From NCBI GenBank assembly GCA_016490735.1, contig JAEMWC010000611.1, positions 251,001-315,000 of the forward strand: 64,000 bases of DNA, read 5' to 3'. The notes under the pieces were generated by a model. That model did not search any database. It was given only the letters and a program-made list of their open reading frames with translations, and was not told the DNA's origin. The translations under genes and the position numbers were made by a program. Every line of letters begins with the position of its first letter. Position 1 is the first letter of the stretch. Source of the DNA: Pachyseris speciosa. Its lineage: Eukaryota; Cnidaria; Anthozoa; Scleractinia; Pachyseridae. Below, one piece after another: positions 13,111 through 59,812 of this stretch.

Positions 13111-13116
13111 AAAAAC

Positions 13117-13640: not shown

Positions 13641-13763
13641 TTTATCACTCGCAAAGAACCAACAAAATGTTAGCTTAGTTGGTGGAGCACCCCACCGGTA
13701 TCGATTCCCGTACAAAGCTGAATATTTTTCAGGCTTTCTTTTCACTGCTGCTTAAGTAGTGTT

Positions 13764-13841
13764 CATAACTGCGATGACCATTTACATATTCATTATTCTT
13801 TACTTGTGTTTTTGCTTGGCAATTCTGCTAAGCAATAATGA

Positions 13842-13874
<33 letters not shown>

Positions 13875-13893
13875 AACTAATAATAATAATAAC

Positions 13894-13934
<41 letters not shown>

Positions 13935-14135
13935 AATACATTTAAATAGCGTCTTTTCCCTATGGTCCAAAAACGCTTTACAGGTGACAAATTAAATTTA
14001 TCATATACAATATAATCGTTAAAAAAACATTAAATTCCCATCATTCATAACTGCGATGACCATTTACATATTCATTATTCTTTACTTGTGTTTTTGCTTG
14101 GCAATTCTGCTAAGCAATAATGATACTACTACTAT

Positions 14136-14183
<48 letters not shown>

Positions 14184-14331
14184 AACAACAACTAATAATA
14201 ATAATAATAATAATAATAATACAATACATTTATATAGCGTCTTTTCCCTATGGTCCAAAAACGCTTTACAGGTGACAAATTAAATTTATCATATACAATA
14301 TAATCGTTAAAAAACATTAAATTCCCATCAT
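13764..14331. repeat. 282-bp tandem duplication containing trinucleotide microsatellites
   Basis: cataactgcgatgaccat begins at 13764 and again at 14046. Each copy holds an ACT tract running into an AAT tract (13839-13933 and 14123-14222) followed by the same 100-bp tail (acagg, tgacaaattaaatttatc). The tract lengths differ between copies. Poly-Thr/Asn ORFs across these tracts are artefacts. The later array units lack the microsatellite entirely. Confidence 0.8.
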
Positions 14332-14752
14332 TATTACTGTTACCTACTAGTACTACTCGATAAAAATCATTGTCCGCCATAAGCCTTTAAAAAAATGGCG
14401 CCTGACAAATCTATCCGGCTTTGATATCAATGATAAATAGCCTTACAAGCCTCGTTAGCATGTGCAACATGCAATAGAAGTTTTGCGTAAAAGTGTAGTG
14501 AGTAAGGCTAATTAACGTACGTACAAAAGAATAATCAAAATCATCCGCCCTTAAGAAAGAGGTCTATAGTTGGCAATTTATTATTACATGTTCAGTTCAG
14601 TTGCTTTCTTATGCTTTAAGGCCTTTAGCACTAGTCAGTGTCAGTTACTTGATAAACATATTCAGCAGCATTATTGTCTGAAGCTAGGGACTTGGCTAAT
14701 GCTCCCGCTTTCTATTTTGTACTTCCCCGTTTCCCCAGTCATAATGTGTCAT

Positions 14753-14909
14753 AATAGGCTAGTTTCGAATTGTGGTGGAACAAAAGAGCAGAGTCGAGGT
14801 TCAGGAGAATAATTTGCATTTTCTTTTGTCAAACACAAAGGAAAATGCAAATTATTCCTGAACCTCGACTTGGTTCTCTTGTTCTCCCACAATTCGAAAC
14901 TAGCCTATT
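14753..14909. repeat. Foldback hairpin (family H), founder copy
   Basis: A 157-bp palindrome-like element with two arms of about 68 bp (aataggctagtttcgaattg... and its inverse ...aattcgaaactagcctatt) around a loop of about 17 bases (ttttgtcaaacacaaag). This copy has the best-paired arms in the window. In the array units the arms carry about ten mismatches. A transcript of either strand would form a long hairpin. It is copied, with the sub-repeat, 18 times between 26109 and 55510 and once at about 23219. Confidence 0.8.
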
Positions 14910-15061
14910 ATTTTTCTATTTTAAGATAAGTAAGTATTAATTAAAATTTAAGTCGTCTTGTTTCATTATTTCAGGACTCTTCTAATTGGGAAAGAAAACT
15001 AACCAGGCAGTTTGATGACATGGGAGAGAGAAAAAAGGACTTAAACTTTGGTTTGGGGTCA

Positions 15062-15066
15062 AACCT
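15062..15066. other. Target-site duplication of the BEL element (left)
   Basis: aacct, matching the copy at 21873-21877. The empty site tcaaacctctttcatc is present in every array unit, for example at 26418. Confidence 0.9.
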
Positions 15067-15211
15067 TGGATAGCCCAAATAAACTTTAGCTTAAACACAA
15101 CAGCCATGTTCATTTTTGTTCGACCTCGTGCTACTAAAAACACGCGCGCGCTCATGGGAAACCTAACCCAGAAAACCTGGAGCGAGGCTGTTACAGGAAG
15201 TGACCGCTCCA
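15067..15211 (-). repeat. BEL 3' LTR
   Basis: 145 bp. Compared with the 5' LTR at 21746-21872 it is identical except for one substitution and an 18-bp extra segment near 15177-15194. Begins tggatagccc and ends gaccgctcca on the plus strand. Confidence 0.9.
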
Positions 15212-15222
15212 TCCTCCCCCCC
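15212..15222 (-). promoter_or_regulatory. Polypurine tract of the BEL element
   Basis: On the element strand GGGGGGGAGGA lies directly against the 3' LTR. This is the usual position of the plus-strand primer for reverse transcription. Confidence 0.75.
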
Positions 15223-15353
15223 AGGGAGTTTACGGAGAACAAGCCCCTCTAAGAACAGTTCCTAGGTTCAACATAACAACAACAATATGCAGTTTCTAAG
15301 CAAAAATGTCTTAAGTGTTTGGAGTCCTCATAAGAGCTCTACTGTTCATTCTA

Positions 15354-18300
15354 TTAAGCAGACGCTTCCAACAAGCACAACTTAGCAGCTGGGCGCATCA
15401 AGATTCCATTTGGAGTCTTCACCTCCGCCATACGCACTCTGTCATCACTCTCTGAGAAAGTCTTGACAATCCGTCCCAGAGGCCAATGCGAGCGAGGAGC
15501 ATCATCATTCTTCAGAATGATCAGATCCCCTACTTGTAAATTCCTCTGTTCTTTATTCCACTTAGAACGGGTAGTTAGGCTAGGTAAATACTCCTTCCGC
15601 CATCGACGCCACAGCATATCAGCCAGCGCTTGCGCCATTCTCCACCGCTTACGGCTGTTAACTTCTCGCTCCTCAAATTGACCTGGAGGGTTGTTAGGAG
15701 ATGCTCTTCCAATCAGAAAGTGATTTGGTGTTAATGCTTCATAGTCGTTCAAGTCATCACTGACTGAAGTTAGCGGGCGACTATTTAGTACAGCCTCGGT
15801 CTCAACAAGAACCGTATGGAGTGTCTCCTCTGGCATAACCCGGTCATTAATGACAGTCTTCATGGCTCTCTTAACTTGCTTCACCAGTGACTCAAAGATT
15901 CCTCCCATATGAGGGGACGATGGTGGGTTAAAGAACCATGTGACCCCTTGCTGGGCTAGCTCACTTGCGATGCTTTCTTGATTTAATGACTTCAGTGCCT
16001 CCTCTAGTTCTCTCTTGGCTCCAACAAAATTGGTTCCATTGTCGGAACGCATTGTCCTGGGATTGCCTCTACGGCTTCGAAATCTCCTCAAGGCCATGAT
16101 AAACGAATCAGTACTTAAGTCTCCTGCTAGCTCTAAATGGACCGCGCGGGTGGTTAGGCAAGTAAAGATGCATCCCCATCTTTTCTCAGTGCTTCTTCCC
16201 TTCTTAACATTCGTAGGACCAAAATAGTCCACTCCAGTGTTTGTAAACGGAGGCTCAAAACATGCAAGTCGCTCTCTAGGCAAGTCCGCCATGACAGGCA
16301 CTTTAGGCTCGGTTCTCCTCTTCCTACAGTACAGGCAACCATTAACGATCTTCCTAGCAAGTGATTTTCCTTGGGGAATCCAGAACTGCTGACGCACAAG
16401 GGCTAGGGTATGTTCTCTCCCAACATGTAGATGCTTCTCATGAATGTCTCGTACCACGAGTTTTGAAATTGGATGTGATGGGAGGAGAATCACTTGGTGC
16501 TTTGCCTCAAATGGTATGGGAGCTTTGTTGAGACGGCCTCCGACTCTGATAACTCCACCTAGGAAAACAGGCTGCAGTGGGAGTAGTGAGCTGTTGTGGA
16601 GTAGTGCTCTGTTGGCTTGGAGATCTTCATAGTCTTCTTTGTACGACTCAATCTGTGCTAACTGGCATAAGGCTAGAGAGGCATCTTTAAGATCATCAGC
16701 ACACAGAATTTTCCCTTGTCGCTCTGAGGGAGGACATTGCTTCTTCGCTTTACACTTTAACTTGAACTTGTACCTCATCCACCAAGCATACACGCGCACC
16801 AGCTTCCTCCAAGAAGAGTACCTCTCCCATGCGACCATACTCGCACTGGGTGTAGCGGACGTTGCCAGGACTGAAGCCTTCACTTCCAGCTCACCGTCGT
16901 CAAATTCTACTACCTTTCCGTTCCTTGGCCATTGGTCTTCAGAAAGCATGAGGAAGGCGGGACCACTGATCCACCGATACGCAGGAGTCAACTCACACAT
17001 TTCGATCCCTCTTGTGCAGTCATCGGCCACATTTATTGAGCCTGGCACATGGTGCCACTCCTTAACGTCAGAGGTAGAGGCAATTTCAGCAACTCTGTGT
17101 GACACATAAACGCTGAATCTTCTGTGAGTGTTCCTAATGTAATGGAGCACAATCTCTGAGTCACTCCAGAGGTACGCATCATCAACTTCGAAGTCGATTT
17201 CTGCCAATATCTTCAACTTCAGCCTGACTGCTATCACTGCAGCTTGCAGTTCAAGGCGTGGTATTGTCAAGGTCTTGATCGGGGCTAGTCTTGTCTTACT
17301 CATGATGAAACTCACATTCACACGTCCATGACTAACCGTTCGGAAATAGGCTACGGCTCCATAAACCATCTCTGAGGCGTCACAAAACACATGCAGCTGC
17401 ACATCTTCGCATTCGTCACGGTGGAATCCATACCACCTGGGTACCGCAATAATCTGAGATGACTTCAAACCATCTTTCCAGTTTTGCCAGCTCTGAAGAA
17501 TTTCATCAGGCAGCTCTTCATCCCAATCAATTTTACGCCTCCACAGCTCCTGTACGATCAGCTTTGCCTTAATGACATATGGCGCAGCAAACCCAAGGGG
17601 ATCAAACACACTACTTGTGGCACTCAATATTCCCCTCTTAGTGTCGGGGAAGCCACTCTTCACTGGCTGCAGACATAGGAAATCATGTTCCGTGTACCAC
17701 TTGACACCAAGAGCTCTTTCTTGTGGCAACTCATTACAATCAAGATCAACAGTGTTACATGCGACTTCTGAGGAGGGGATCGCAGCCAGGACCTTTCGGC
17801 TGTTTGACATCCACTTTGTAAGTCTGAAGCCTCCTGTTGCTAGGAGGTCAATTAGCTGCTTGGCTAAGTTGGCAGCTCCACTGGAATTTGGTTTTGAGGA
17901 TAAAAGATCGTCCATGTAAAAGTTGCGCAGAACGGCGCGAACTGCTTCCTCACTGAAGTTCTCTGACTGATCAAGGGCAGTTCTTTGTAATGCATAGTTG
18001 GCACAACAGGGTGAGTCAACCGCGCCAAAAGCATGCACTGTCATTTGGTACTCATCTGGTGGTCTAGTTTCATCTAAATCTCTCCACAGAAAACGCAACG
18101 CGTCCCTGTCTTCTTCACAAACTCCGACCTGATGGAACATCTGCTCCACATCCGCCATGATACCAATCTTTCCACCTCTAAATCGCAATAGGATTCCTAT
18201 CAAATTATTTAGCAAGTCAGGACCAGTGAGCAGGTTGTCATTCAGGGAAACCTTGTCATACTTTGACGCCGCATCAAAAACCACACGGACCTTCCCTGGT

Positions 18301-18770
18301 TTGTTGGCGTTTAGTACCGCATGGTGTGGGAGGTACCATGTCTTTGAAGTCGTTTTCTTTGACTCTTCAGGCGTCAATTTCTTAGCATGCCCTTCACTGA
18401 TATAACTGTTAATCACGTCCCGGTACTTCCTTGCCAGGTCTGGATTCTTCTTAAGTTTCCTTTCAGTAGAATGGAGACGCGAAACAGCCATAGCACGATT
18501 GTTGGGTAAACTTGGCTCCTCTTTCCACAACAATGCTGTTTTGTAGTGGCCTTCCTCCTTCACTGTGCTACTTTCTAATATCGACAGCGCTCTTCTGTCT
18601 TCAGCTGACATGCCAGAGTCAGAGGGGGCTTGCTTGGTAGCATAGGAGTCTATCTCCCAAAACCACTCAATTTGGTTCTGCAGTTGAGTTTCTTGATCAG
18701 TTACACGGAAATTGGCATTGATTGTGTCACAGCATTTACTGTCCACATTTCCAAACAGGGTCCATCCCAA
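15354..18770 (-). CDS. pol: BEL/Pao pol: reverse transcriptase, RNase H, integrase
   Basis: A 1138-codon open frame; the listed start is a TTG and the true polyprotein would begin further upstream. Reverse transcriptase: catalytic Asp in ADVEQMFHQV (about residue 207) and the YMDD box at 285-288. RNase H: Asp in FCDAS (464), Glu in RLELQ (507), Asp in WSDSE (537), Asp pair in VADDCTRG. Integrase: His residues in HEKHLHVGREH (777-787) with CLYC (812-815) as a zinc site, then the D,D,E core in TGVDYF (848), RSDNGTNF (910) and GGIFESLVKQ (960). The C-terminus carries the BEL-typical tail with WPLGRI. All key residues are present, so this portion looks intact even though the upstream parts are broken. 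Length and order fit Pao-family pol. Confidence 0.93.
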   Translation of the reverse strand: MGWTLFGNVDSKCCDTINANFRVTDQETQLQNQIEWFWEIDSYATKQAPSDSGMSAEDRRALSILESSTVKEEGHYKTALLWKEEPSLPNNRAMAVSRLHSTERKLKKNPDLARKYRDVINSYISEGHAKKLTPEESKKTTSKTWYLPHHAVLNANKPGKVRVVFDAASKYDKVSLNDNLLTGPDLLNNLIGILLRFRGGKIGIMADVEQMFHQVGVCEEDRDALRFLWRDLDETRPPDEYQMTVHAFGAVDSPCCANYALQRTALDQSENFSEEAVRAVLRNFYMDDLLSSKPNSSGAANLAKQLIDLLATGGFRLTKWMSNSRKVLAAIPSSEVACNTVDLDCNELPQERALGVKWYTEHDFLCLQPVKSGFPDTKRGILSATSSVFDPLGFAAPYVIKAKLIVQELWRRKIDWDEELPDEILQSWQNWKDGLKSSQIIAVPRWYGFHRDECEDVQLHVFCDASEMVYGAVAYFRTVSHGRVNVSFIMSKTRLAPIKTLTIPRLELQAAVIAVRLKLKILAEIDFEVDDAYLWSDSEIVLHYIRNTHRRFSVYVSHRVAEIASTSDVKEWHHVPGSINVADDCTRGIEMCELTPAYRWISGPAFLMLSEDQWPRNGKVVEFDDGELEVKASVLATSATPSASMVAWERYSSWRKLVRVYAWWMRYKFKLKCKAKKQCPPSERQGKILCADDLKDASLALCQLAQIESYKEDYEDLQANRALLHNSSLLPLQPVFLGGVIRVGGRLNKAPIPFEAKHQVILLPSHPISKLVVRDIHEKHLHVGREHTLALVRQQFWIPQGKSLARKIVNGCLYCRKRRTEPKVPVMADLPRERLACFEPPFTNTGVDYFGPTNVKKGRSTEKRWGCIFTCLTTRAVHLELAGDLSTDSFIMALRRFRSRRGNPRTMRSDNGTNFVGAKRELEEALKSLNQESIASELAQQGVTWFFNPPSSPHMGGIFESLVKQVKRAMKTVINDRVMPEETLHTVLVETEAVLNSRPLTSVSDDLNDYEALTPNHFLIGRASPNNPPGQFEEREVNSRKRWRMAQALADMLWRRWRKEYLPSLTTRSKWNKEQRNLQVGDLIILKNDDAPRSHWPLGRIVKTFSESDDRVRMAEVKTPNGILMRPAAKLCLLEASA

Positions 18771-18792
18771 AGGGGGTTTTTACGGGAATGGG

Positions 18793-19218
18793 CTAATCCC
18801 ATCGTCCTTGGCGAACGTCCAGGTGAATCAGTAAGTGAGCCATGTCCGATCCAACGAGAACTTTCACATCGCTACCATCGAGTTTAGGAAGGTCAATGTT
18901 CAACAAATGGTTCCATTGTTCAGTCACTCTTTCCTTCGACATCTTGACGGATGGGACATTGAGTCTGTCAATCACCCATGCTCCCTGTACAGAAATCGGT
19001 TGCGGATGGACTTTAGATGACAAGGAGAAACTCACTCGGCTTACATTCTGGATCTTGACATCAGAGCCAACTGTGTTTAGACTAATCTGGTGGGTCTCAC
19101 CATCAAGTCGCAGGTGGTCTGCTAAGTCCTTTCTGATTAAGGTCGAGTCGCTCCCGGCGTCAAGGGCAGCATATGTGTTGACTACACCACGAGGACCATG
19201 GATTTGAACCGGCAGGAC
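18793..19218 (-). pseudogene. BEL/Pao aspartic protease region
   Basis: It continues the gag frame after a TAA at 19219-19221 and ends at a TAG at 18793-18795. It contains the retropepsin-like active-site motif LDAGSDS near 19150-19170 and a downstream hydrophobic segment ending VLVGSDMAHLLIHLDVR, typical of the BEL peptidase domain. A further frame change in a C/T run (about 18770-18778) separates it from pol. The stop may be a disabling mutation or a read-through site. With several other breaks present, a disabled copy is more likely. Confidence 0.75.
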
Positions 19219-20304
19219 TTACAGGAGGACCTTTCTCCTAGGCTGAACACTCACTTGATTGATGCTTCTCGGGACATCAGATGGAACCGCCAGAGGAGAA
19301 CTTGTAGTGGGTACCTGAGGCTGAGAATTCTCTTTTCGGAAGATTGGTGACTGAATGTTAGTGCTTTCGCTGTGAGCTAAACTATGACTATGTGAGTCGC
19401 TTTGACGATCTTCATGCAGGAGCGTGTGATGAGGTCGGTTGCAATTCTCTCTGAGACAACGGTTGGTACTTGGGCATTCTTTCGATTGATGGTTTGCTTT
19501 AAGGCAATTAAAGCAAAGTCTATGCTCCCATACATGTTTCCTATCCTTCAAGGCTTTGGACTTGAAAACAGGACAAAGGGCAACACGGTGTCTGTCTGAA
19601 CAAACAACACACTTCTGTTCACTAGGATGGGCTGATTTCCCACCCTCCTTGTTGTAGGGCTGGATTTGAACGGCTTTAGGAGGCTTGGTAGTCGTAGCGA
19701 GAGAATGTAGCTTCAGATTTGACTTTGGTCTTGTACATGACTGCTTCTTGTACAACTCTTCACATATGAAATCTTCAAGTGGGTTGAATAGAGTGTCAAC
19801 TCTTTTACAAAGCCACCGTTCAAATACTATCAAGGTAGCTCTCTCAGTATGACCATCAATATGTTCGTACCATCTCACTCTAAGGTTAATGGGTAACCGC
19901 ATAGTGGCCCTGCTTAGATACTCTGGTGTTAAAAGTATAGCGGACTGACCCATCTTGACGCACCAGGTGGTACAAGCTTTCACTTGATAACAATAGTCAC
20001 GCAATGCCTGTCTATCATGCGAAGTCACAACAGAGTTATCAAGCATGTTCTTTAAGTAGGCTGATGCCACACTGCTGGGGTTCCCAAACTGTCGTTTTAG
20101 TGTTTTAAGAGCTGTTGGATAACTATGGCCAGTCACACCCAGACTTTCCACTGCTTTCTTTGCTTCGCCGCTGAGATTTTGAAAGAGATAGGACATTCGA
20201 TCCGAGTCAATCAGTGTCGTCTTATTTTTTATGGATCTGGTCACGAAATCGCTCAATAAACTTAGGACACTCAATCGGCTTGCCTGTAAACTTGAAAAGC
20301 TCAA
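19219..20304 (-). pseudogene. gag: BEL/Pao gag, C-terminal part with zinc knuckle
   Basis: Holds the second half of the BEL gag-like domain and a nucleic-acid-binding region: CVVC at residues 232-235, then CFNC-x4-H-x4-C (264-277), then a Cys/His-rich CLRENCNRPHHTLLH. The first 25 or so residues of the open frame overlap the end of the preceding frame and are out of phase with it. The real gag reading enters this frame at about 20230, where a run of six A (on the minus strand) separates the two frames. Ends at TAA 19219-19221. Confidence 0.8.
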
Positions 20305-21562
20305 AGGGTGGCAAGCACTGCTGCTCCTGTGCTCGAAGCAGAGCTATACCAGAGTCTGTCAGTGAGCCATTGAGATTTGCCGTAAAGACCGTCTCCTGAC
20401 CATCTACCAGCTTGTCAATGAATGCATCTACAGGTTCTCCCACAGGGTCTACTTGAGCTGGTCGATGCAGAGGGTTTGACCTAACTTGACTTGAGTGGGA
20501 AGTTGAGCTACTTCTAAGGTTTGGGCCCCACAACGGTGTACTACTTGAGTAAGGATGGTTCAATGGACTTTCAAACTTTGGATCATCAGGGGAACAAGCT
20601 TGGAAACTATTACTAACAGCAGATGATGCACTAACACAAGTAGGTCTCAACAATGAAGGGATGGCTTGAGGAGTTTGGCTCATTTTTTCTGAACGCTCAA
20701 TTGCAGGTTTTGTTGACCAAGAAACTGATGTGATAGGACTTGTGTATCCACTACTGTATCCAATCAATGGTTGGGGCGAGTGCACGTCATGACATGATGA
20801 TGCTGTATTTCTTTGAGGATCTGAAACTAGCCCAACAGGGGTGATTATAGGCTGAGATACATATTCACTTCCTTGGCTGAACGGGTATGACTGAGTTGGC
20901 TTTAGGGTAGAACTGTAGGTAAGCATATTGGATTCACTGTCTTTCATAAGGGGTATCTGAACTGCAGATGAGGTGCACCCACCACTGGTAGGTGCATAAA
21001 ACTCTAAGACCTTTGGCGGTAAACACTTGGCCGTTGTATTTACTGGGGTATCTGCATACGAGACGAGAACTTGTTTGTCATGTTGCAGAGATGTATGACC
21101 TGACGTTTTGTGTTCTTGGGAAACATATCCCGCAGTCATTCCAGGGTTCAACTCAGTACGTGGGTTTGAAATATTATCCATACTTTCAGCATCAGTATTC
21201 ACATTAGGACTTGGAACTAAACAATGTTTCAGAGATGTTACTGTTTCACTGACCTTGTTGTCTTGATTCTTTTCGACGTTTCTTTCGGTAACTTCTTGCC
21301 CTATTATTTCGTGTTCGAGTTGGGCTAATTCGGCTTCGTTCCGGGCTGAAATGACTGCCTTTTCGCTCTCTCTTTTCTTTCGAAGCAGCTCAAGCTCCCG
21401 TTTCCGATATTCAAGTTTTAACTCCAACTCGCGTTGAGCCATTTCTTCGCGGAATTCCTCCTCACGAACTTCATTTTCTCGCTTCACTTGTTCGGCTAAC
21501 TGTTTTGCCTGTAGGTTTGCGACGGCAGCTTTTATTCTAGCTTCTCGCTTTCGCTTAGACAA
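20222..21562 (-). pseudogene. gag: BEL/Pao gag, N-terminal part with coiled coil
   Basis: 446 codons. Residues 1-105 form a charged coiled coil rich in Lys, Glu and Arg (KRKREARIKAAVANLQAKQL is the start). Residues 130-400 are a Ser/Thr/Pro-rich linker, and the last 40 residues (LPPFELFKFTGKPIECPKF) begin the BEL gag-like domain (the block that normally reads 'LP.F..F.G.P..WP.F'). The frame ends at TAA 20222-20224, just after the A run where it is broken. The ATG at 21562 is the first good start, and no in-frame upstream ATG was seen. Confidence 0.8.
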
Positions 21563-21723
21563 GGACGAGGACTTTGACCTTACGGAATCATTCTGACTTG
21601 AAACTTGACTTATCGAGTCTTCAGGACTTACTTCGGGACTGTTTCAAAGCGGGGATATCACACATTCATCTACCAAGTTCCACTTACTTTTAAGGCTCAT
21701 CCTCAGGCGGCTGTTTCCTTAAA

Positions 21724-21741
21724 TCCGGCTCGAAAGGACCA
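21724..21741 (-). promoter_or_regulatory. BEL primer-binding site, tRNA-Tyr-like
   Basis: On the plus strand tccggctcgaaaggacca, complementary to the site, resembles the 3' end of eukaryotic tRNA-Tyr (tccggctcgaaggacca) with one extra A. It lies four bases inside the 5' LTR. Confidence 0.65.
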
Positions 21742-21745
21742 ATTT

Positions 21746-21872
21746 TGGATAGCCCAAATAAACTTTAGCTTAAACACAACAGCCATGTTCATTTTTGTTC
21801 GACCTCGTGCTACTAAAAACACGCGCGCGCTCATGGGAAACCTAACCCAGAAAACCGAAAGTGACCGCTCCA
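21746..21872 (-). repeat. BEL 5' LTR
   Basis: 127 bp, ending at the right target-site duplication aacct (21873-21877). See the 3' LTR for the comparison. Confidence 0.9.
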
Positions 21873-22402
21873 AACCTCTTTCATCTTTGTTCCGTATTAT
21901 TTAACTGGGCCGCCGGATTAAACAAAAATATTTACAAGTATAAATTCTACTCGGAAGAGAACAGCTACGACCACTTACAACGTTGTTATACAACCGTGCA
22001 TAACTGCTGCCTGTTTGCCCCAGATAGAGTGGCATTTGAGACTTTAAGGAAGAATCGGGTTTAGCACAATCTCCTGCTGTTTCAGACTAGAAAATAAAAC
22101 GACGTGGATATGGTCTGTTGTTCCCCAACTTTGGGAAGTTGCATAAGATGTGAAGCGTATGCATACAGTTGAAGGGAAATTATTTTGGCTATGAACTAAT
22201 GATATGAAAGTCAAATATTTGAACAGGGAATTCAAGAATGAAGACGTGAGTGATCGTTGCAGTTATGAACGCTACTTAAGCAGTGGCGGAAACATCTTCC
22301 TTCTTTTATCTGCAGTTCAAATATATGATTTAAATACGTTCATAGTCACTTATTCATCACTCGCGGGCTTATTACGGACCAACAAAATGACCAGCTCCCA
22401 GT

Positions 22403-22476
22403 TTTCTTGTTGGCTTAGTTGGTAGAGCACTGCACCGGTATCGCAGAGGCCATGGGTTCGACTCCCGTAGAAGCCT
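22403..22476 (+). repeat. tRNA-like SINE head (S1), array copy
   Basis: Contains ggcttagttggtagagc (A box), ctgca-ccggtat-cgcag (anticodon arm, GGT at the anticodon position) and gggttcgactccc (B box), but the acceptor (ttcttgt against agaagcc) does not pair fully. The tail runs ttttctttttcagccctttttatt. The same segment is repeated at 23786-23859 and once in each of units 1-8, from which a truncated relative (gatt tcccgt fusion) marks each unit start. Confidence 0.6.
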
Positions 22477-23182
22477 GATTTTCTTTTTCAGCCCTTTTTA
22501 TTACATAATGCTAAAGCAGTGTTCATAACTGCCGAAATTATTTTGCTTGCTATCTCTTAAGACATCAGCATATACGACAGCACTGCACGGGGATAGCACG
22601 ATTTTTGCATGCTCAGATTGTTTTAGCTCAATGACTGAACTTGAATAAGAACTGCATGAACAAAACTTTAACTGTTCAGATCCGCTCTCATGAGTCTGAA
22701 ATCGACAAAGGAAACACTGATTAACAACGTTCATTGCCGTGTTCTTTTTTTAGTGTTTCTGTTTCTTTCCTCTTAAGGAGACTAATTATATAATGGTCTC
22801 AGCCATGCCTGGTTCATCTGTACCTATTCCCTAATAACCCAAAATCCACTAATACTTTCCTATTGCGTAATAAGCCCTTGGACGCATATTTGGCATGCTT
22901 TCAACTAGTTTTCCTCGTTTTAGGTAAGATACAAGAATTGTTCTATACACACCTTGCCTTCCTTTGGGCGAGGCTGTCGACGTCTTTTTAAGTGTGGCAA
23001 TGGGTTCTTGAAAACAAGTTAAAAGAATAAGAAAACGAACAACTGAGTGCTTCAACCTGATTTGCCAGTGATGAAATATGGACTTGGACGTTTTTAACAC
23101 TATTTTCCTGGGCTTTTGTAACGTTGTTTTCTCTTTCCTTAGCCTGCGGGCGAGCTGTCTTAAGAAATTTACGTCACTCGCA

Positions 23183-24260
23183 GCCGTACTTCCCCGTTTC
23201 CCCAGTCATAATGTCTCATAATAGGCTAGTTTCGAATTGTGGTGGAACAAAAGAGCAGAGTCGAGGTTCAAGGGAATAATTTGCATTTTCTTTTGTCAAA
23301 CACAAAGGAAAATGCAAATTATTCCCCTGAAACTCGACTTGGTTCTCTTGTTCTCCCACAATTCGTTGTTTGACAACCGTGCATAACTGCTGCCTGTTTG
23401 TCCCAGAGAGGGTGGCATTTGAGGCTGTAAGGAAGAATCGGGTTTAGCACAATCTCCTGCTGTTTCAGACTAGAAAACAAAACGACGTGCATATGGTCTG
23501 TTGTTCCCCAACTTTGGGAAGTTGCATAAGATGTGAAGCGTATGCATACAGTTGAAGGGAAATTATTTTGGCTATGAACTAATGATATGAAAGTCAAATA
23601 TTTGAACAGGGAATTCAAGAATGAAGACGTGAGTGATCGTTGCAGTTATGAACGCTACTTAAGCAGTGGCGGAAACATCTTCCTTCTTTTATCTGCAGTT
23701 CAAATATATGATTTAAATACGTTCATAGTCACTTATTCATCACTCGCGGGCTTATTACGGACCAACAAAATGACCAGCTCCCAGTTTTCTTGTTGGCTTA
23801 GTTGGTAGAGCACTGCACCGGTATCGCAGAGGCCATGGGTTCGACTCCCGTAGAAGCCTGATTTTCTTTTTCAGCCCTTTTTATTACATAATGCTAAAGC
23901 AGTGTTCATAACTGCCGAAATTATTTTGCTTGCTATCTCTTAAGACATCAGCATATACGACAGCACTGCACGGGGATAGCACGATTTTTGCATGCTCAGA
24001 TTGTTTTAGCTCAATGACTGAACTTGAATAAGAACTGCATGAACAAAACTTTAACTGTTCAGATCCGCTCTCATGAGTCTGAAATCGACAAAGGAAACAC
24101 TGATTAACAACGTTCATTGCCGTGTTCTTTTTTTAGTGTTTCTGTTTCTTTCCTCTTAAGGAGACTAATTATATAATGGTCTCAGCCATGCCTGGTTCAT
24201 CTGTACCTATTCCCTAATCACCCAAAATCCACTAATACTTTCCTATTGCGTAATAAGCCC
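23183..24260. repeat. Partial duplicate of the founder middle segment
   Basis: Begins with gtacttccccgtttcccc, which also occurs at 14718, fused to the end of the previous block with a 2-bp overlap (gt). It contains a hairpin copy from about 23219, then a deletion (cacaattcg fused to ttgtttgacaaccgtg at about 23365), then the same sequence as 22000-23180 at high identity. Shows that unequal exchange began inside the founder. Confidence 0.7.
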
Positions 24261-24638
24261 TTGGAAGCGTATTTGGCATGCTTTCAACTAGTTTTCCTCG
24301 TTTTAGGTAAGATACAAGAATTGTTCTATACACACCTTGCCTTCCTTTGGGCGAGGCTGTCGACGTCTCTTAAAGTCTGACATTGGGGTCTTGAAGACAA
24401 TTTAAATGAATAAGAAAACGAACAAATGAGTGCTTCAACCTTATTTGCCAGTGATGGAATCTGGACTTGGACGTTTTTAACGCTATATTCCTGGGCTTTT
24501 GTAACGTTGTTTTCTCTTTCCTTAGCCTGCGGGCGAGCTTTCTTAAGAGATTTACGTCACTCGCGCCCGTCTTAAATCATGGGTGATAATCCAACTTAAA
24601 GCTTGCTCAAAGGCAACTCTTTCCTGAGCCAATCGAGC

Positions 24639-41124: not shown

Positions 41125-41155
<31 letters not shown>

Positions 41156-49400: not shown

Positions 49401-50367
49401 TGTTAACAACAATAACAATGAATATGTGAATGATCATAGCAGTTCAAATATACGATTATCATATATTCATTCTCACAACAATAACAATGACAATTCTTGG
49501 TTTTCAGTTGCGCTGGTAAAAAAATAAAGTCATTAACCATTGAATAGATAAAGTCAAGAAATTGAGATATTGTTGAAGATTCATAAATAAATAAATAAAT
49601 AAATAAATAGATAAATAAAACACAAAAGTCTCAGGGCTGTGTGATATCCCGTACTCGACTTATTTGGTAAAAAGTACCACTCAAAATTATAGAGTTTAGC
49701 ATGGGCACGCCATCTTGTTGTCCCTCTGAGGGACACCAAGATCGCGGCCGGAAACGAGTGAAAGCAAATGTTTTTTTTTTTAATGACTTAAGCTATTTCA
49801 GAGGCTTTCTTCTCTCTGTTGAGCTTTCAAACATACACATGGACGCTTTTCTTGCCATGTTGGCTTTTCCAACCTCACAAACACAAGGTGAATCAATGTT
49901 TTCATGTATGTTGCATGCTTGTGAGCAGAGATCTTTACGTCACGCACTGTGAAAAAGTCTAAAATTCAAACTGCTCTCTTTTCAAAACAAAGCAACCTAC
50001 CGAGCTGAGAACATGGAAGCAGATAAATTTCTAAAATTCTTTTACCTGATCAAGATAAAAATACAAATGTCTTTTTACTTTTGAATGATAGGTTTTTATT
50101 ATGACGTAACGTGGAAACCAAGAGAAAAAAAGGTAAAAAAAAAAACAATAAAACAAAGCAAAAACTGGGCAAGGTGGCTAGACTACAAAATTTCAAAGAA
50201 CTGTTAGTCATTTTAAGAAATACCGTAAAAGCTCTATTTTTGGCTTAGTTAATTTTAGGCCTCATTAACGGGGAGCTTATTAGAGAGAGAGAAAGAGAGG
50301 TGGGGGGGGGGGGGGGGTGGGATCTTTCAAATCTTAAACACGCCTTTAAAAAAGCTTTTGTACAAAA
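46499..50367. repeat. Array unit 6 (3869 bp, two sub-repeats)
   Basis: Sub-repeats start near 46866 and 47549, hairpins at 46899 and 47583, tRNA-like segment at 48463-48536. The (ATAA)n tract is two repeats shorter than in neighbouring units. Confidence 0.85.
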
Positions 50368-53300
50368 TTTATCATCTCGCAAAGAACCAACAAAATGTTA
50401 GCTTAGTTGGTCGAGTACTGCACCGGTATCGATTCCCGTACAAAGCTGAATATTTTTCAGGCTTTCTTTTCACTGCAGCTTAAGTAGTGTTCATAACTGC
50501 AATGACCATTTACATATTCATTATTCTTTACTGGTCTTTTGGCTTGGCAATTCTGTTAAGCAATAGTCCCTTTTCATAATAGCGCCTGACAGATCTATCC
50601 GGCTTTGATATCAATGATAAATAGCCTTACAAGCCTCGTTAGCATGTGCAACATGTAATAGAAGTTTTGCGTAAAAGTGTGGTGAGTAAGGCTAATTAAC
50701 GTACGTACAAAAGAATAATCAAAATCATCCGCCCTTAAGAAAAAGGTCTACAGTTGGCAATTTATTATTACATGTTCAGGCTAGTTTCGAATTGTGGTGG
50801 AACAAAAGAGCTGAGTCGACGTTCAGGAGAATAATTTGCATTTTCTTTTGTCAAACACAAAGGAAAATGCAAATTATTCCCCTGAAACTCGACTTGGTTC
50901 TCTTGTTCTCCCACAATTTGAAACTAGCCTATTATTGTTCTATTTCAATATAAGTAAGTATTAATTAAAATTTAAGTTGTCTTGTTTCATTATTTCAGGA
51001 CTCTCCTAATTGGGTAAGAAGACTAAGTAAACCAGGCAGTTTGATGACATGGGAGAGAGAAAAAAGGACTGAAACTTTGGTTTGGGGTCAAACCTCTTTC
51101 ATCTTTGTTCCGCATTATTTAACTGGGCCGCCGGATTAAACAAAAATAGTTACAAGTATAAATTCTACTCGGAAGAGAACGGCTACATGTTCGATTCTTC
51201 TATTTTATTATTAATTACGATACGACCACTTACCACGTTGTTAGACAACCGTGCATAACCGCTGCCTGTTTGTCCCAGAGAGTATGGCATTTGAGGCTTT
51301 AAGGAAGAATCTGGTTTAGCACAATCTCCTGTTTTTTCAGACTAGAGAAAGAAACGACATGGATATGGTCTGTTGTTCCCCAACTTTGGGAAGTTGCATA
51401 AGATGCATAAGTTGCATAAGAAGAAAAAGGTCTACAGTTGGCAATTTATTATTACATGTTCAGGCTAGTTTCGAATTGTGGTGGAACAAAAGAGCTGAGT
51501 CGACGTTCAGGAGAATAATTTGCATTTTCTTTTGTCAAACACAAAGGAAAATGCAAATTATTCCCCTGAAACTCGACTTGGTTCTCTTGTTCTCCCACAA
51601 TTTGAAACTAGCCTATTATTGTTCTATTTCAATATAAGTAAGTATTAATTAAAATTTAAGTTGTCTTGTTTCATTATTTCAGGACTCTCCTAATTGGGTA
51701 AGAAGACTAAGTAAACCAGGCAGTTTGATGACATGGGAGAGAGAAAAAAGGACTGAAACTTTGGTTTGGGGTCAAACCTCTTTCATCTTTGTTCCGCATT
51801 ATTTAACTGGGCCGCCGGATTAAACAAAAATAGTTACAAGTATAAATTCTACTCGGAAGAGAACGGCTACATGTTCGATTCTTCTATTTTATTATTAATT
51901 ACGATACGACCACTTACAACGTTGTTAGACAACCGTGCATAACCGCTGCCTGTTTGTCCCAGAGAGTATGGCATTTGAGGCTTTAAGGAAGAATCTGGTT
52001 TAGCACAATCTCCTGCTGTTTCAGACTAGAGAAAGAAACGACATGGATATGGTCTGTTGTTCCCCAACTTTGGGAAGTTGCATAAGATGTGAAGCGTATG
52101 CATACAGTTGAAGGGAAATTATTTTGGCTATGAACTAATGATATGAAAGTCAAATATTTGAACAGGGAATTCAAGAATGAAGACGTGAGTGATCGTCGCC
52201 GTTATGAACGCTACTTAAGCAGTGGCGGAAACATCTTCCTTCTTTTATCTGCAGTTCAAATATATGATTCTCATATGTTCATAGTCACTTATTCATCACT
52301 CGCGGGCTTATTACGGACCAACAAAATGACCAGCTCCCAGTTTTCTTGTTGGCTTAGTTGGTAGAGCACTGCACCGGTATCGCAGAGGCCATGGGTTCGA
52401 CTCCCATAGAAGCCTGATTTTCTTTTTCAGCCCTTTTTATTACATACTGCTAAAGCAGTGTTCATAACTGCCGAAATTATTTTGCTTGCTATCTCTTAGG
52501 ACATCAGCATATACAATAGCACTACACGGGGATAGCACGATTTTTGCATGCTCAGATTGTTTTAGCTCAATGATTGAACTTGAATAAGAACTCCATGAAC
52601 AAAACTTTAACTGTTCAGAGCCGCTCTCATGAGTCTTGGATCGACAAAGGAAACACTGATTAACAACGTTCATTGCCTTGTGCTTTTTTGGTGTTTCTGT
52701 TTCTTTCCTTTTAAGGAGACTAATTATATAATGGTCTCAGCCATGCCTGGTTCATCTGTACCTATTCCTAATCACCCAAAATCCACTAATACTTTCCTAT
52801 TGCGTAATAAGCCCTTGGAAGCGTATTTGGCATGCTTTCAACTAGTTTTCCTCGTTTTAGGTAAGATACAAGAATTGTTCTATACACACCTTGCCTTCCT
52901 TTGGGCGAGGCTGTCGACGTCTCTTAAAGTCTGACATTGGGGTCTTGAAGACAATTTAAATGAATAAGAAAACGAACAAATAAGTGCTTCAACCTTATTT
53001 GCCAGTGATGGAATCTGGACTTGGACGTTTTTAACGCTATATTCCTGGGCTTTTGTAACGTTGTTTTCTCTTTCCTTAGCCTGCGGGCGAGCTTTCTTAA
53101 GAGATTTACGTCACTCGCGCCCGTCTTAAATCATGGGTGATAATCCAACTTAAAGCTTGCTCAAAGGCAACTCTTTCCTGAGCCAATCGAGCGGGAAGGG
53201 GAAGGGAGAAGTGAGGGAGGGAAAGGAGGGTTGGGGCTTGACTTCTCTTAACGTGTTTGCAATTTAAGAGGCCTTTCAGTGTTAACAACAATAACAATGA

Positions 53301-53462
53301 ATATGTGAATGATCATAGCAGTTCAAATATACGATTATCATATATTCATTCTCACAACAATAACAATGACAATTCTTGGTTTTCAGTTGCGCTGAAAAAA
53401 AAATAAAGTCATTAACCATTGAATAGATAAAGTCAAGAAATTGAGATATTGTTGAAGATTCA

Positions 53463-53493
<31 letters not shown>

Positions 53494-54261
53494 ATAGATA
53501 AATAAAACACAAAAGTCTTAGGGCTGTGTGATATCCCGTACTCGAGTTATTTGGTAAAAAGTACCACTCAAAATTATAGAGTTTAGCATGGGCACGCCAT
53601 CTTGTTGTCCCTCTGAGGGACACCAAGATCGCGGCCGGAAACGAGTGAAAGCAAATGTTTTTTTTTTTAATGACTTAAGCTATTTCAGAGGCTTTCTTCT
53701 CTCTGTTGAGCTTTCAAACATACACATGGACGCTTTTCTTGCCATGTTGGCTTTTCCAACCTCACAAACACAAGGTGAATCAATGTTTTCATGTATGTTG
53801 CATGCTTGTGAGTAGAGATCTTTACGTCACGCACTGTGAAAAAGTCTAAAATTCAAACTGCTCTCTTTTCAAAACAAAGCAACCTACCGAGCTGAGAACA
53901 TGGAAGCAGATAAATTTCTAAAATTCTTTTACCTGATCAAGATAAAAATACAAATGTCGTTTTACTTTTGAATGATAGGTTTTTATTATGACGTAACGTG
54001 AAAACCAAGAGAAAAAAAGGTCTGAAAAAAAAAACAATAAAACAAAGCAAAAACTGGGCAAGGTGGCTAGACTACAAAATTTCAATGAACTGTTAGTCAT
54101 TTTAAGAAATACCGTAAAAGCTCTATTTTTGGCTTAGTTAATTTTAGGCCTCATTAACAGGGAGCTTATTAGAGAGAGAGAAAGAGAGGTGGGGGGGGGG
54201 GGGGGGGGTGGTGGGTTCTTTCAAATCTTAAACACGCCTTTAAAATAGCTTTTGTACAAAA
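50368..54261. repeat. Array unit 7 (3894 bp, two sub-repeats)
   Basis: Sub-repeats start near 50744 and 51428, hairpins at 50778 and 51462 (both with gagctgag), tRNA-like segment at 52342-52415. Shares the late variants ggtttttattatgacg and gtgagtagag with the end of unit 5. Confidence 0.85.
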
Positions 54262-57200
54262 TTTATCATCTCGCAAAGAACCAACAAAATGTTAGCTTAG
54301 TTGGTCGAGTACTGCACCAGTATCGATTCCCGTACAAAGCTGAATATTTTTCAGGCTTTCTTTTCACTGCTGCTTAAGTAGTGTTCATAACTGCAATGAC
54401 CATTTACATATTCATTATTCTTTACTGGTGTTTTGGCTTGGCAATTCTATTAAGCAATAGTCCCTTTTCATAATAGCGCCTGACAGATCTATCCGGCTTT
54501 GATATCAATGATAAATAGCCTTACAAGCCTCGTTAGCATGTGCAACATGTAATAGAAGTTTTGCGTAAAAGTGTGGTGAGTAAGGCTAATTAACGTACGT
54601 AAAAAAGAATAATCAAAATCATCCGCCCTTAAGAAAAAGGTCTCCAGTTGGCAATTTATTATTACATGTTCAGGCTAGTTTCGAATTGTGGTGGAACAAA
54701 AGAGCTGAGTCGACGTTCAGGAGAATAATTTGCATTTTCTTTTGTCAAACACAAAGGAAAATGCAAATTATTCCCCTGAAACTCGACTTGGTTCTCTTGT
54801 TCTCCCACAATTTGAAACTAGCCTATTATTGTTCTATTTCAATATAAGTAAGTATTAATTAAAATTTAAGTTGTCTTGTTTCATTATTTCAGGACTCTCC
54901 TAATTGGGTAAGAAGACTAAGTAAACCAGGCAGTTTGATGACATGGGAGAGAGAAAAAAGGACTGAAACTTTGGTTTGGGGTCAAACCTCTTTCATCTTT
55001 GTTCCGCATTATTTAACTGGGCCGCCGGATTAAACAAAAATAGTTACAAGTATAAATTCTACTCGGAAGAGAACGGCTACATGTTCGATTCTTCTATTTT
55101 ATTATTAATTACGATACGACCACTTACAACGTTGTTAGACAACCGTGCATAACCGCTTCCTGTTTGTCCCAGAGAGTATGGCATTTGAGGCTTTAAGGAA
55201 GAATCTGGTTTAGCACAATCTCCTGCTGTTTCAGACTAGAGAAAGAAACGACATGGATATGGTCTGTTGTTCCCCAACTTTGGGAAGTTGCATAAGATGC
55301 ATAAGTTGCAAAAGAAGAAAAAGGTCTACAGTTGGCAATTTATTATTACATGTTCAGGCTAGTTTCGAATTGTGGTGGAACAAAAGAGCTGAGTCGACGT
55401 TCAGGAGAATAATTTGCATTTTCTTTTGTCAAACACAAAGGAAAATGCAAATTATTCCCCTGAAACTCGACTTGGTTCTCTTGTTCTCCCACAATTTGAA
55501 ATTAGCCTATTATTGTTCTATTTCAATATAAGTAAGTATTAATTAAAATTTAAGTTGTCTTGTTTCATTATTTCAGGACTCTCCTAATTGGGTAAGAAGA
55601 CTAAGTAAACCAGGCAGTTTGATGACATGGGAGAGAGAAAAAAGGACTGAAACTTTGGTTTGGGGTCAAACCTCTTTCATCTTTGTTCCGCATTATTTAA
55701 CTGGGCCGCCGGATTAAACAAAAATAGTTACAAGTATAAATTCTACTCGGAAGAGAACGGCTACATGTTCGATTCTTCTATTTTATTATTAATTACGATA
55801 CGACCACTTACAACGTTGTTAGACAACCGTGCATAACCGCTGCCTGTTTGTCCCAGAGAGTATGGCATTTGAGGCTTTAAGGAAGAATCTGGTTTAGCAC
55901 AATCTCCTGCTGTTTCAGACTAGAGAAAGAAACGACATGGATATGGTCTGTTGTTCCCCAACTTTGGGAAGTTGCATAAGATGTGAAGCGTATGCATACA
56001 GTTGAAGGGAAATTATTTTGGCTATGAACTAATGATATGAAAGTCAAATATTTGAACAGGGAATTCAAGAATGAAGACGTGAGTGATCGTCGCCGTTATG
56101 AACGCTACTTAAGCAGTGGCGGAAACATCTTCCTTCTTTTATCTGCAGTTCAAATATATGATTCTCATATGTTCATAGTCACTTATTCATCACTCGCGGG
56201 CTTATTACGGACCAACAAAATGACCAGCTCCCAGTTTTCTTGTTGGCTTAGTTGGTAGAGCACTGCACCGGTATCGCAGAGGCCATGGGTCCGACTCCCA
56301 TAGAAGCCTGATTTTCTTTTTCAGCCCTTTTTATTACATACTGCTAAAGCAGTGTTCATAACTGCCGAAATTATTTTGCTTGCTATCTCTTAGGACATCA
56401 GCATATACAATAGCACTACACGGGGATAGCACGATTTTTGCATGCTCAGATTGTTTTAGCTCAATGATTGAACTTGAATAAGAACTGCATGAACAAAACT
56501 TTAACTGTTCAGAGCCGCTCTCATGAGTCTTGGATCGACAAAGGAAACACTGATTAACAACGTTCATTGCCTTGTGCTTTTTTGGTGTTTCTGTTTCTTT
56601 CCTTTTAAGGAGACTAATTATATAATGGTCTCAGCCATGCCTGGTTCATCTGTACCTATTCCTAATCACCCAAAATCCACTAATACTTTCCTATTGCGTA
56701 ATAAGCCCTTGGAAGCGTATTTGGCATGCTTTCAACTAGTTTTCCTCGTTTTAGGTAAGATACAAGAATTGTTCTATACACACCTTGCCTTCCTTTGGGC
56801 GAGGCTGTCGACGTCTCTTAAAGTCTGACATTGGGGTCTTGAAGACAATTTAAATGAATAAGAAAACGAACAAATGAGTGCTTCAACCTGATTTGCCAGT
56901 GATGGAATCTGGACTTGGACGTTTTTAACGCTATATTCCTGGGCTTTTGTAACGTTGTTTTCTCTTTCCTTAGCCTGCGGGCGAGCTTTCTTAAGAGATT
57001 TACGTCACTCGCGCCCGTCTTAAATCATGGGTGATAATCCAACTTAAAGCTTGCTCAAAGGCAACTCTTTCCTGAGCCAATCGAGCGGGAAGGGGAAGGG
57101 AGAAGTGAGGGAGGGAAAGGAGGGTTGGGGCTTGACTTCTCTTAACGTGTTTGCAATTTAAGAGGCCTTTCAGTGTTAACAACAATAACAATGAATATGT

Positions 57201-57772
57201 GAATGATCATAGCAGTTCAAATATACGATTATCATATATTCATTCTCACAACAATAACAATGAGAATCCTTGGTTTTCAGTTGCGCTGGTAAAATAATAA
57301 AATGATTAACCATTGAATAGATAAAGTCAAGAAATTGAGGTATTGTTGAAGAGTAATAAATAAATAAAACACAAAGTCTTAGGGGTGTGCGATATCCCGT
57401 ACTCGAGTTATTTGGTAAAAAGTACCACTCAAAGTTATCGTGTTTAGGATGGGCACGCTATCTCTCGTTGTCCCTCTGAAGGACAACAAGATGGGGGCCG
57501 GAAACGTGTGAAAACATATGTTTTTAACTTAAGCTATTACAAAAGCTTTCTTCTCTCTGTTGAGCTTTCAAACATACACATGGACGCTTTTCTTGCCATT
57601 TTGGCTTTTCAAACCTCAAAGACACACGGTGACCCGATGTTTTCATGTATGTGACATGCTTGTGAGCAGACATCTTTACGTCACGCACTGTGAAAAAATC
57701 TAAAATTCAAACTGCTGTGTTTTCAAAACAAAGCAAGCTACCGAGGTGAGAACATGCAAGCAGACACATTTT

Positions 57773-58198
57773 AACCGCCGACCGGTTAGCTAACCGCCGA
57801 CCTGTTAGCTCACTGGTAGAGCACCGGACTACCGTGCAGGAGGTCGCGGGTTGAAACCCCGGCCGGACCAACACACAGGGTCTTTAAATAATTGAGGAGA
57901 AAGTGCTGCCTTTGTAATGATATCTGCAAATGGTTAGACTTCTAGTCTTCTCGGATAAGGACGATAAACCGTAGGCCCCGTCTCACAACTCTTCATAATT
58001 GATTCTGTGGGACGTTAAAGAACCCACGCACTGTTCGAAAAGAGTAGGGGACGTAGTGCCCGGTGTGGTGGTCTATCTCTACTAGAATGTGGTTACGGGG
58101 GAGGGATTTGTAGTTACGGGCCTACAGTAATTGGCGCACGCTGTTGTAGTGTCTCTGGCGAAGCTAATAAAATAAAATAAAATAAAATAAAATAAAAA
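57773..58198 (+). mobile_element. tRNA-derived SINE inserted in unit 8
   Basis: The head (57800-57880) has gttagctcactggtagagc (A box) and gggttgaaaccccggccgg (B box). The body contains gtgggacgttaaagaacccac, resembling the conserved central domain of the metazoan MetaSINE superfamily as I recall it, and the tail is (ATAAA)n at 58168-58198. The head's first 19 bp (aaccgccgaccggttagct) are tandemly duplicated. Other units provide the empty site (gcagatacatttctaaaattc). A short duplicated attt may be the target duplication. Confidence 0.75.
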
Positions 58199-58317
58199 AA
58201 TTTCTAAAATTCTTTTTCGCGAAGAAGATAAAAATACAAATGTCTTTTTAGTTTTGAATTTTAGTTTTTTTAATGAGGTAACGTGAAAACCAAGAGAAAA
58301 AATGGACTGAAAAGAAA

Positions 58318-58385
58318 AAAACAACAACAACAACAAAAAACAAACAAACAAAAACAACAACAACAACAACAAAAAAAAAACAATA
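58318..58385. repeat. AAC/A-rich microsatellite
   Basis: Poly(AAC) and A runs inside the diverged end of unit 8. Absent from the other units, which have a plain aaaaaacaataaaac here. Confidence 0.8.
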
Positions 58386-58455
58386 AAAGAAAGGTAAAAC
58401 TGGGCAAGTGGCTAGGCTACAAAATTTCCATGAACTGTTAGTCATTTTAAGGAAT

Positions 58456-58853
58456 ACCGTAAAAGTTCTATGTTTAGCTTATTTAAGCTTATTTAGGCCT
58501 TATTAACGGGGAGCTTCTTAGAGAGGGAGGGGGGGGGGTGTTCTTTCAAATCTTAAACACGCCCTTAAAATAGTTTTTGTACAAAACTCAAACAACTGAA
58601 GTGAAACGTTATTATTTAATAAAGTGAAGCAAAGAGTATTATGTGTTTGAGTGTATATTTGTTTAAAAACAAACCAAGTAGTCTGATGGAAATGGATTCC
58701 GTAAGAGGAAATATGAGGGACTAATTACAAAACCTCATGTTCCAAAAGGGGCAGGGGAAGTTATCACAGAGGGAGAAGAGGCCTGTTACAAAACTTGCTC
58801 TCCAAATGGGGGGCTTATTTGAGAGGAGGGGGACTTAATAGAGCTTTTACGAT
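58456..58853. mobile_element. TIR element truncated in the array units
   Basis: Left end taccgtaaaagttctat and right end, on the opposite strand, atcgtaaaagctctatt. The first about 130 bp (to 58586) occur in every array unit, ending at the seam. The full element exists only here. Contains the motif ggagcttatt/gggcttattt internally. Confidence 0.6.
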
Positions 58854-59723: not shown

Positions 59724-59771
59724 GGACTTCAACGGGGTTCGAACCCGTGACCTCGCGATTACCGGTGCGAT

Positions 59772-59797: not shown

Positions 59798-59812
<15 letters not shown>

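What the first reader, a model, noticed from the sequence alone, without database searches (positions are those of the whole stretch)
13641..58586. Forty-five-kilobase nested tandem array with a higher-order structure
Eight units follow a founder copy. Their lengths (3880, 3882, 3201, 5261, 4576, 3869, 3894 and about 3.9 kb without the SINE) are explained by one variable: the number of internal 684-bp sub-repeats. Satellite units of nearly 4 kb with a sub-repeat that itself expands and contracts are uncommon, and a founder with intact flanks in the same window makes the history readable. The array may be neutral, or an emerging structural or regulatory satellite.
Basis: seen in the sequence. 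Interest (0 to 1): 0.85.

Follow-up and report, generated by a model that had tools for sequence, protein, structure and literature searches.

The report
Coral macrosatellite array with nested sub-repeats
A stretch of ordinary, transposon-rich, non-coding DNA in what is probably a coral genome has been copied head to tail about nine times, with an inner block that also varies in number; it looks like the product of repeated unequal recombination and shows no sign of a function.

Summary
The array is real in this assembly. Eight units of about 3.9 kb (25698-58585) follow an older, rearranged copy (13640-25697). Unit length = 2515 + 684n, with n = 2,2,1,4,3,2,2,2 sub-repeats (residuals -4 to +16 bp).

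The founder story needs correcting. Units R1-R7 differ by at most about 0.75%. The left-edge copy differs from them by about 4%, the right end of the last unit by about 10%. The "founder" changes within 64 bp (24155-24219) from left-type to core-type sequence for its last 1.5 kb, so it is a mosaic; the right edge holds a second old segment. Best reading: an old tandem duplication, then recent amplification of an inner hybrid unit by unequal homologous exchange, with sub-repeats expanding and contracting on top.

The unit shows no coding signal and carries pieces of dispersed transposons; two unique parts occur only here (10 of 10 and 21 of 21 genome hits). This is a locus-specific macrosatellite, a kind documented in humans; tandem duplication is pervasive in corals. 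I found no evidence of a structural or regulatory role. True copy number needs long reads.

The parts
13391..13639 (+). left flank: tRNA-derived SINE leading into the array
   Evidence: 78% match to the SINE inside the units over 13391-13569; sequence reads through into the left copy
13640..25697 (+). left edge copy ('founder'): one unit-equivalent with n=1 plus inserts; a mosaic of old (L) and core sequence
13838..14393 (+). microsatellite-rich (TAC)n(TAA)n insert with most of two 288-bp copies, present only in the left copy
14756..14911 (.). palindromic foldback element (MITE) in the left copy
   Evidence: self-complement 86% over 14751-14911; 97% match to the unit's copy
15067..21872 (-). 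BEL/Pao LTR retrotransposon inserted only in the left copy; target duplication AACCT; LTRs identical over the 112 bp aligned
   Evidence: Pfam Peptidase_A17, DUF5641, Integrase_H2C2, DUF1759 above cut-off; LTRs, duplication and the empty site in a unit
23187..23363 (.). extra MITE copy at the junction of the 1.38-kb internal duplication
24155..24219 (.). recombination breakpoint: L-type sequence to the left, core-type to the right
   Evidence: shared with the left copy at 21 of 21 informative columns from 1004 to 1668, core-type at 22 of 22 from 1732 to 2079
25698..29577 (+). unit R1, n=2
29578..33459 (+). unit R2, n=2
33460..36660 (+). unit R3, n=1
36661..41921 (+). unit R4, n=4
41922..46487 (+). 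unit R5, n=3
46488..50366 (+). unit R6, n=2
50367..54260 (+). unit R7, n=2
54261..58585 (+). unit R8, n=2, with a SINE insert; its right part is old (R-type)
26068..26751 (+). example of the 684-bp sub-repeat (type A); the junction AAGTTGCATAAGATGCATAAGTTGCATAAG/AAGAAAAAGG has TAAGA microhomology to its other end
26109..26264 (.). 156-bp palindromic MITE inside each sub-repeat; can fold into one long hairpin
   Evidence: fold of the unit R3 copy -55.9 kcal/mol, z -13; dispersed family
27674..27743 (+). tRNA-like head of the SINE carried by each unit (example in R1)
   Evidence: Rfam tRNA at 40 bits here
28709..29333 (+). approximate place in unit R1 of a ~600-bp high-copy dispersed repeat (R2 positions 3012-3636)
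   Evidence: the query 24800-25400 gave 34 of 44 matches on other contigs, the 31 main ones at 79-86%; extent from 11 fetched loci
56890..57264 (.). interval in which R8 changes from core to R-type sequence
57774..58199 (+). 426-bp SINE insert in the last unit
   Evidence: breaks the match of R8 to the other units; tRNA-like head and A-rich tail read from the sequence

Best explanation
A locus-specific, non-coding macrosatellite. An ordinary ~3.2-kb stretch containing SINE, MITE and dispersed-repeat fragments was tandemly duplicated long ago; the breakpoint lies inside a SINE at GTACAAAA/TTTATCA (junctions shown, event inferred). The copies diverged (shown: about 4% at the left edge, about 10% at the right edge). 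Later, unequal homologous exchange between misaligned copies produced and amplified an inner hybrid unit. The central units therefore became nearly identical, while left-type and right-type sequence survives mainly at the two edges (pattern shown, mechanism inferred). A second tandem duplication of 684 bp at a short TAAGA microhomology (junction shown) made sub-repeats whose number changes by the same kind of exchange (inferred). A BEL/Pao element inserted in the left copy and a SINE in the last one. No function is indicated; the array most likely persists neutrally.
For: Units R1-R7 differ pairwise by at most 24/3195, R1-R4 by at most 5/3196. The left copy differs from R1-R7 by 84-88 of about 2017 sites. 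R8 has 10 substitutions up to column 1955, then 83 of 855 sites differ in columns 2250-3249. The left copy's second part is left-type at 21 of 21 informative columns from 1004 to 1668 and core-type at 22 of 22 from 1732. Alleles of the right-edge type occur at 7 places in R5-R7, and R6 and R8 carry left-copy alleles at columns 110 and 169, the mosaic expected from exchange. R4 and R5 share, in their second sub-repeats, a junction change seen in no other sub-repeat, although their numbers are 4 and 3; the 2320 aligned bases before their first sub-repeats show no substitution. So the number probably changed after they separated. Array edges fall at the same unit phase in both flanks. Single locus: 10 of 10 and 21 of 21 genome matches on this contig.
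Against: The simplest two-copy model predicts equal divergence at the two edges, but they differ (4.2% against 9.7%, Fisher p=4e-8), and CpG decay does not explain it (3.5% against 9.9% at non-CpG sites). So there was conversion on the left, more than two old copies, or a diverged donor. The two switch points are not at the same unit phase (columns 1668-1732 and 1955-2329). The switch in the left copy is clean only from column 1004: between 884 and 1003 its second part is left-type at 6 columns, core-type at 4, private at 3 and all three differ at 2. Not all variants follow the edge pattern: R1 and R2 also carry one right-type state each (columns 3250, 3056), and changes at 2776, 2876, 2902 and 2954 are shared among R5-R7 but not with R8. 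The 1.38-kb duplication on the left is an added event. Reads were not seen, so the number of near-identical inner units is uncertain.
Confidence: 0.78

Rival explanations
1. An array pre-formed on an extrachromosomal circle, or on a diverged haplotype, was integrated by homologous recombination into a single old copy. The left and right edges would then be the two halves of that one copy.
For: The L-type segment ends at about column 2079 and the R-type segment begins between columns 1955 and 2329, so together they make roughly one complete unit. The left border with the core is sharp (64 bp).
Against: Also predicts equal divergence of the two halves (seen 4.2% against 9.7%). R5-R7 and R6/R8 carry edge-type alleles, which needs exchange in place as well. 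No other contig of the assembly holds the two unique parts searched.
Confidence: 0.12
2. Assembly artefact or copy-number error: the array exists, but the number of near-identical inner units, or the sub-repeat counts, are wrong in the assembly.
For: R1-R4 differ by at most 5 of about 3196 sites, and no read data could be seen.
Against: Units carry private substitutions and different sub-repeat counts; both edges join flanking sequence with consistent phase; no N's. A wholly false array is very unlikely.
Confidence: 0.07
3. A functional array: the tRNA-like SINE with Pol III boxes, or the hairpin, makes a boundary or structural element that selection multiplied.
For: B-box-like motifs (consensus recalled) are present in 9 of 10 tRNA-like copies, A-box-like in 10 of 10. 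The hairpin is strong.
Against: The copies are recent, so their conservation says little. Divergence of the left copy is even along the unit (chi-square p=0.12). The MITE is a dispersed family and the tRNA-like part belongs to a SINE with other copies in the window. No match to a recalled CTCF-like consensus (0.84 expected by chance, so weak evidence).
Confidence: 0.03

Closest known systems
[quoted passage not shown] 2008, PMC2588610: abstract and the section on large arrays read)
   Same: Head-to-tail units of several kb, no gene, built from transposon pieces plus other sequence, presumed to have grown by unequal crossing over
   Different: Different organism and sequence; here an inner sub-repeat varies in number between neighbouring units
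Human macrosatellites such as DXZ4, D4Z4 and RS447 (Tremblay et al. 2010, PMC3018141: abstract and background read)
   Same: Units of 3-5 kb specific to one or two places
   Different: Those are known to be polymorphic and some encode proteins or bind CTCF; here neither was shown
Ribosomal DNA spacers with variable sub-repeats (recalled; only search listings seen)
   Same: Tandem unit whose length varies with the number of internal sub-repeats, kept alike by unequal exchange
   Different: No ribosomal RNA gene here
Tandem duplications and NAHR regions in coral genomes (Noel et al. 2023, PMC10236652: abstract and one section; Takeuchi et al. 2025, PMC12314368: abstract and first part of the discussion)
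   Same: Recurrent tandem duplication in corals; the second paper attributes it to non-allelic homologous recombination, with transposons hitchhiking
   Different: Those clusters are genes; this unit is non-coding

Membership tests
Macrosatellite / megasatellite | head-to-tail units of several kb | tested here: met
   8 units of 3.2-5.3 kb plus an older copy
Macrosatellite / megasatellite | specific to one or two chromosomal places | tested here: met
   10 of 10 and 21 of 21 matches on one contig; two stretches of the unit were searched, and the assembly may be incomplete
Macrosatellite / megasatellite | copy number varies between individuals | not testable with these tools
   no reads and no second haplotype at hand
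Transposon-patterned megasatellite (Warburton 2008 class without genes) | unit built from interspersed transposon pieces, no gene | tested here: met
   SINE, MITE and ~600-bp dispersed repeat in the unit; no Pfam match above cut-off in 6 unit frames of 85-107 aa
rDNA with variable spacer | contains rRNA genes | tested here: not met
   Rfam scan of the window at gathering thresholds: 13 matches, each to the tRNA family
Alpha-satellite-type higher-order repeat | unit made throughout of diverged monomers in fixed order | tested here: not met
   only a 684-bp part is repeated, in near-identical copies whose number varies; the other 2.5 kb is single
BEL/Pao retrotransposon (insert at 15067-21872) | Pao-type peptidase, paired LTRs and 5-bp target duplication | tested here: met
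   Peptidase_A17 at 181 bits; LTRs and AACCT duplication
BEL/Pao retrotransposon (insert at 15067-21872) | reverse transcriptase and integrase core domains | tested here: inconclusive
   RVT_1 and rve matched below Pfam's cut-offs; integrase zinc-binding domain above it

The most novel reading that the evidence does not exclude
The hairpin-bearing 684-bp sub-repeat is an active instability element: its 156-bp palindrome stalls replication and drives fast gain and loss of sub-repeats and units, so this locus is a natural hypervariable macrosatellite whose tRNA-like boxes act as a chromatin boundary in the coral.
Probability: 0.04. Interest if true: 0.6.

Novelty: new member of a known kind. Interest (0 to 1): 0.3.

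Why it matters
Both edges, two old copy types, a sharp crossover point and two levels of repeat are legible in a single contig. That makes it a clean worked example of how a macrosatellite can grow from ordinary transposon-rich DNA in an invertebrate. It could serve as a variable marker or a test locus for unequal exchange in corals. It does not reveal a new kind of element.

Tried and rejected
Gene array: rejected, since the longest stop-free frame seen in the two unit stretches listed is 107 aa and none of 6 frames scanned reached a Pfam cut-off. A whole-unit transposon: rejected, since in 11 of 11 fetched off-locus places the main shared stretch was part or all of the ~600-bp repeat; extra pieces were the 156-bp MITE and SINE-like matches of up to 315 bp at 68% in one locus (L017) and pieces of about 35-100 bp in others. 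rRNA or small-RNA array: rejected. CTCF-type boundary: no match to a recalled consensus. CpG decay as the cause of the higher right-edge divergence: rejected. An allelic contig carrying the two unit stretches searched: none found. A right-flank search to look for an allelic site did not complete. The left-flank search hit a young high-copy transposon, so it tells nothing about alleles; a second left-flank search did not complete. I could not sample how common such arrays are in this genome. Host naming: 984 Mb in 2368 contigs matches my memory of the Pachyseris speciosa assembly; the paper looked for was not held and no text I saw gave the number, so it stays recall.
Full report
What is there. 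The window is bases 251001-315000 of contig 611 of a 983,672,442-base, 2368-contig genome. Self-comparison shows a direct tandem array. Unit lengths fit 2515 + 684n with n = 2,2,1,4,3,2,2,2 and residuals of -4 to +16 bp. The array holds no N's. The 10 kb left of the window gave no match to a unit. The fetched stretch to the right begins with about 5 kb of N, so only the remaining 5.4 kb of the window and the second half of that stretch speak for the right side.

Anatomy of a unit. Each unit carries a SINE remnant, then 1-4 sub-repeats of 684 bp, a second SINE with a tRNA-like head (Rfam 36-40 bits), and a ~600-bp dispersed repeat. Each sub-repeat holds a 156-bp palindromic MITE. The copy in unit R3 folds with -55.9 kcal/mol, z about -13. 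The MITE is a dispersed family: the search had 1008 candidates and scored 40, of which 20 places lie on other contigs at 92-95%. The dispersed repeat had 3336 candidates, of which 40 were scored, 31 of them on other contigs. By contrast, unit sequence 27810-28460 gave 10 of 10 matches on this contig and sub-repeat sequence 26270-26760 gave 21 of 21. Six of the unit's longer stop-free frames (85-107 aa) were scanned and none reached a Pfam cut-off; two had weak hits below it.

Sub-repeats. In each unit the copies before the last end in a junction with a TGCATAAG mini-repeat that leads back to the sub-repeat start (10 of 18 copies); the last runs on into unique unit sequence (8 of 18). In 9 of 10 neighbour pairs compared base by base, copies differ at 0-6 of 628 positions before the junction. 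The tenth pair shows 237, which I read as a one-base shift, since the alignment shows no such divergence. The second sub-repeats of R4 (n=4) and R5 (n=3) share a junction change found in no other copy; a further shared change also occurs in R4's fourth copy. The 2320 aligned bases before the first sub-repeats of these two units show no substitution, with an 8-bp length difference. The number has therefore probably changed since they separated.

History. After reducing every unit to one sub-repeat, R1-R7 differ pairwise by at most 24 of 3195 sites. The left copy differs from them by 84-88 of about 2017 sites. Its second part (23364-25697) is left-type at 21 of 21 informative columns between 1004 and 1668, then core-type at 22 of 22 from 1732 to 2079. 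Between columns 884 and 1003 the picture is mixed: 6 left-type, 4 core-type, 3 private, 2 where all three differ. The last unit has ten scattered substitutions up to column 1955, and from column 2329 on is strongly different: 83 of 855 sites in columns 2250-3249. Right-type alleles occur at 7 places in R5, R6 or R7 (two of these also in R1 or R2), and left-type alleles at two columns in R6 and R8; four other columns are shared among R5-R7 but not with R8. Taken together this is what repeated unequal exchange or gene conversion inside an array leaves: homogenised centre, old edges, mosaics mostly near them.

What does not fit neatly. Two old copies of one age should differ from the core equally, but the edges differ by 4.2% and 9.7% (p=4e-8), also away from CpG. 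I read this as conversion on the left or more than two old copies. Insertion of a pre-formed array into one old copy stays open as a rival, because the two old segments add up to about one unit.

Later insertions. A BEL/Pao element (6.8 kb, AACCT target duplication, LTRs identical over 112 aligned bp) sits in the left copy; the unit site looked at is empty, and no unit shows such an insert. Its frames match Pao peptidase, DUF5641, integrase zinc-binding and DUF1759 domains above cut-off, RVT_1 and rve below; one frame of 446 aa matched nothing. A 426-bp SINE sits only in the last unit.

Function. Substitutions between the left copy and the core are even along the unit (chi-square p=0.12), so no constrained island is visible, though power is modest. 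Pol III A-box-like motifs are present in 10 of 10 and B-box-like ones in 9 of 10 tRNA-like copies, but these copies are recent. I found nothing that supports a structural or regulatory role.

Known or new. Human arrays with units above 2 kb, including gene-free ones with repeating transposon patterns, were described in 2008 (PMC2588610; abstract and one section). Macrosatellites of 3-5 kb are introduced in PMC3018141 (abstract and background). Pervasive tandem gene duplication in corals is in PMC10236652 (abstract and one section) and NAHR with hitchhiking transposons in PMC12314368 (abstract and first part of the discussion). Variable sub-repeats inside a tandem unit are familiar from rDNA spacers (recalled; listings only). 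One search for coral together with higher-order satellite terms listed two unrelated papers and none of the other listings showed this array by title; that is a thin search of one open-access library.

Host. The only text seen says that species is one of two with a larger assembly than an 822-Mb coral (PMC11370458, passages). In the search with the retrotransposon protein (7975 candidates scored, 120 hits listed) the named hits include corals (Acropora, Montipora) and anemones but also barnacles, sea urchins and limpets; the 14 closest are unnamed. The species is therefore unproven.

Noticed in passing
12000-13380: Left flank is a young high-copy transposon: 111 match rows from 40 scored of 1959 candidates, six other full-length or nearly full-length copies at 97-99%; in contig 6 three copies lie about 1.5 kb apart, as if it too forms small tandem arrays.
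   Followed up: no
15067-21872: BEL/Pao element with long open frames (1138, 361 and 446 aa) and LTRs identical over 112 aligned bp; one LTR lacks about 20 bp near its end.
   Followed up: partly
59650-60107: Two copies of a tRNA-like SINE in inverted orientation, 99.4% alike over 167 bp, able to form a large hairpin.
   Followed up: no
1459-1791: Reading frame with an N-terminal guanylate-binding-protein domain (Pfam GBP, 3.5e-9), a possible host gene exon near the array.
   Followed up: no
8320-8703 and 10993-11271: Remnants of a reverse transcriptase (RVT_1) and of a GIY-YIG endonuclease.
   Followed up: no
61915-62286 and 62540-62915: Inverted repeat of about 375 bp at 95% identity.
   Followed up: no
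63018-63298: Small tandem array, 96-bp unit, 2.9 copies.
   Followed up: no
L021:1-5006: The stretch just right of the window reads as about 5 kb of N (gap or withheld).
   Followed up: no
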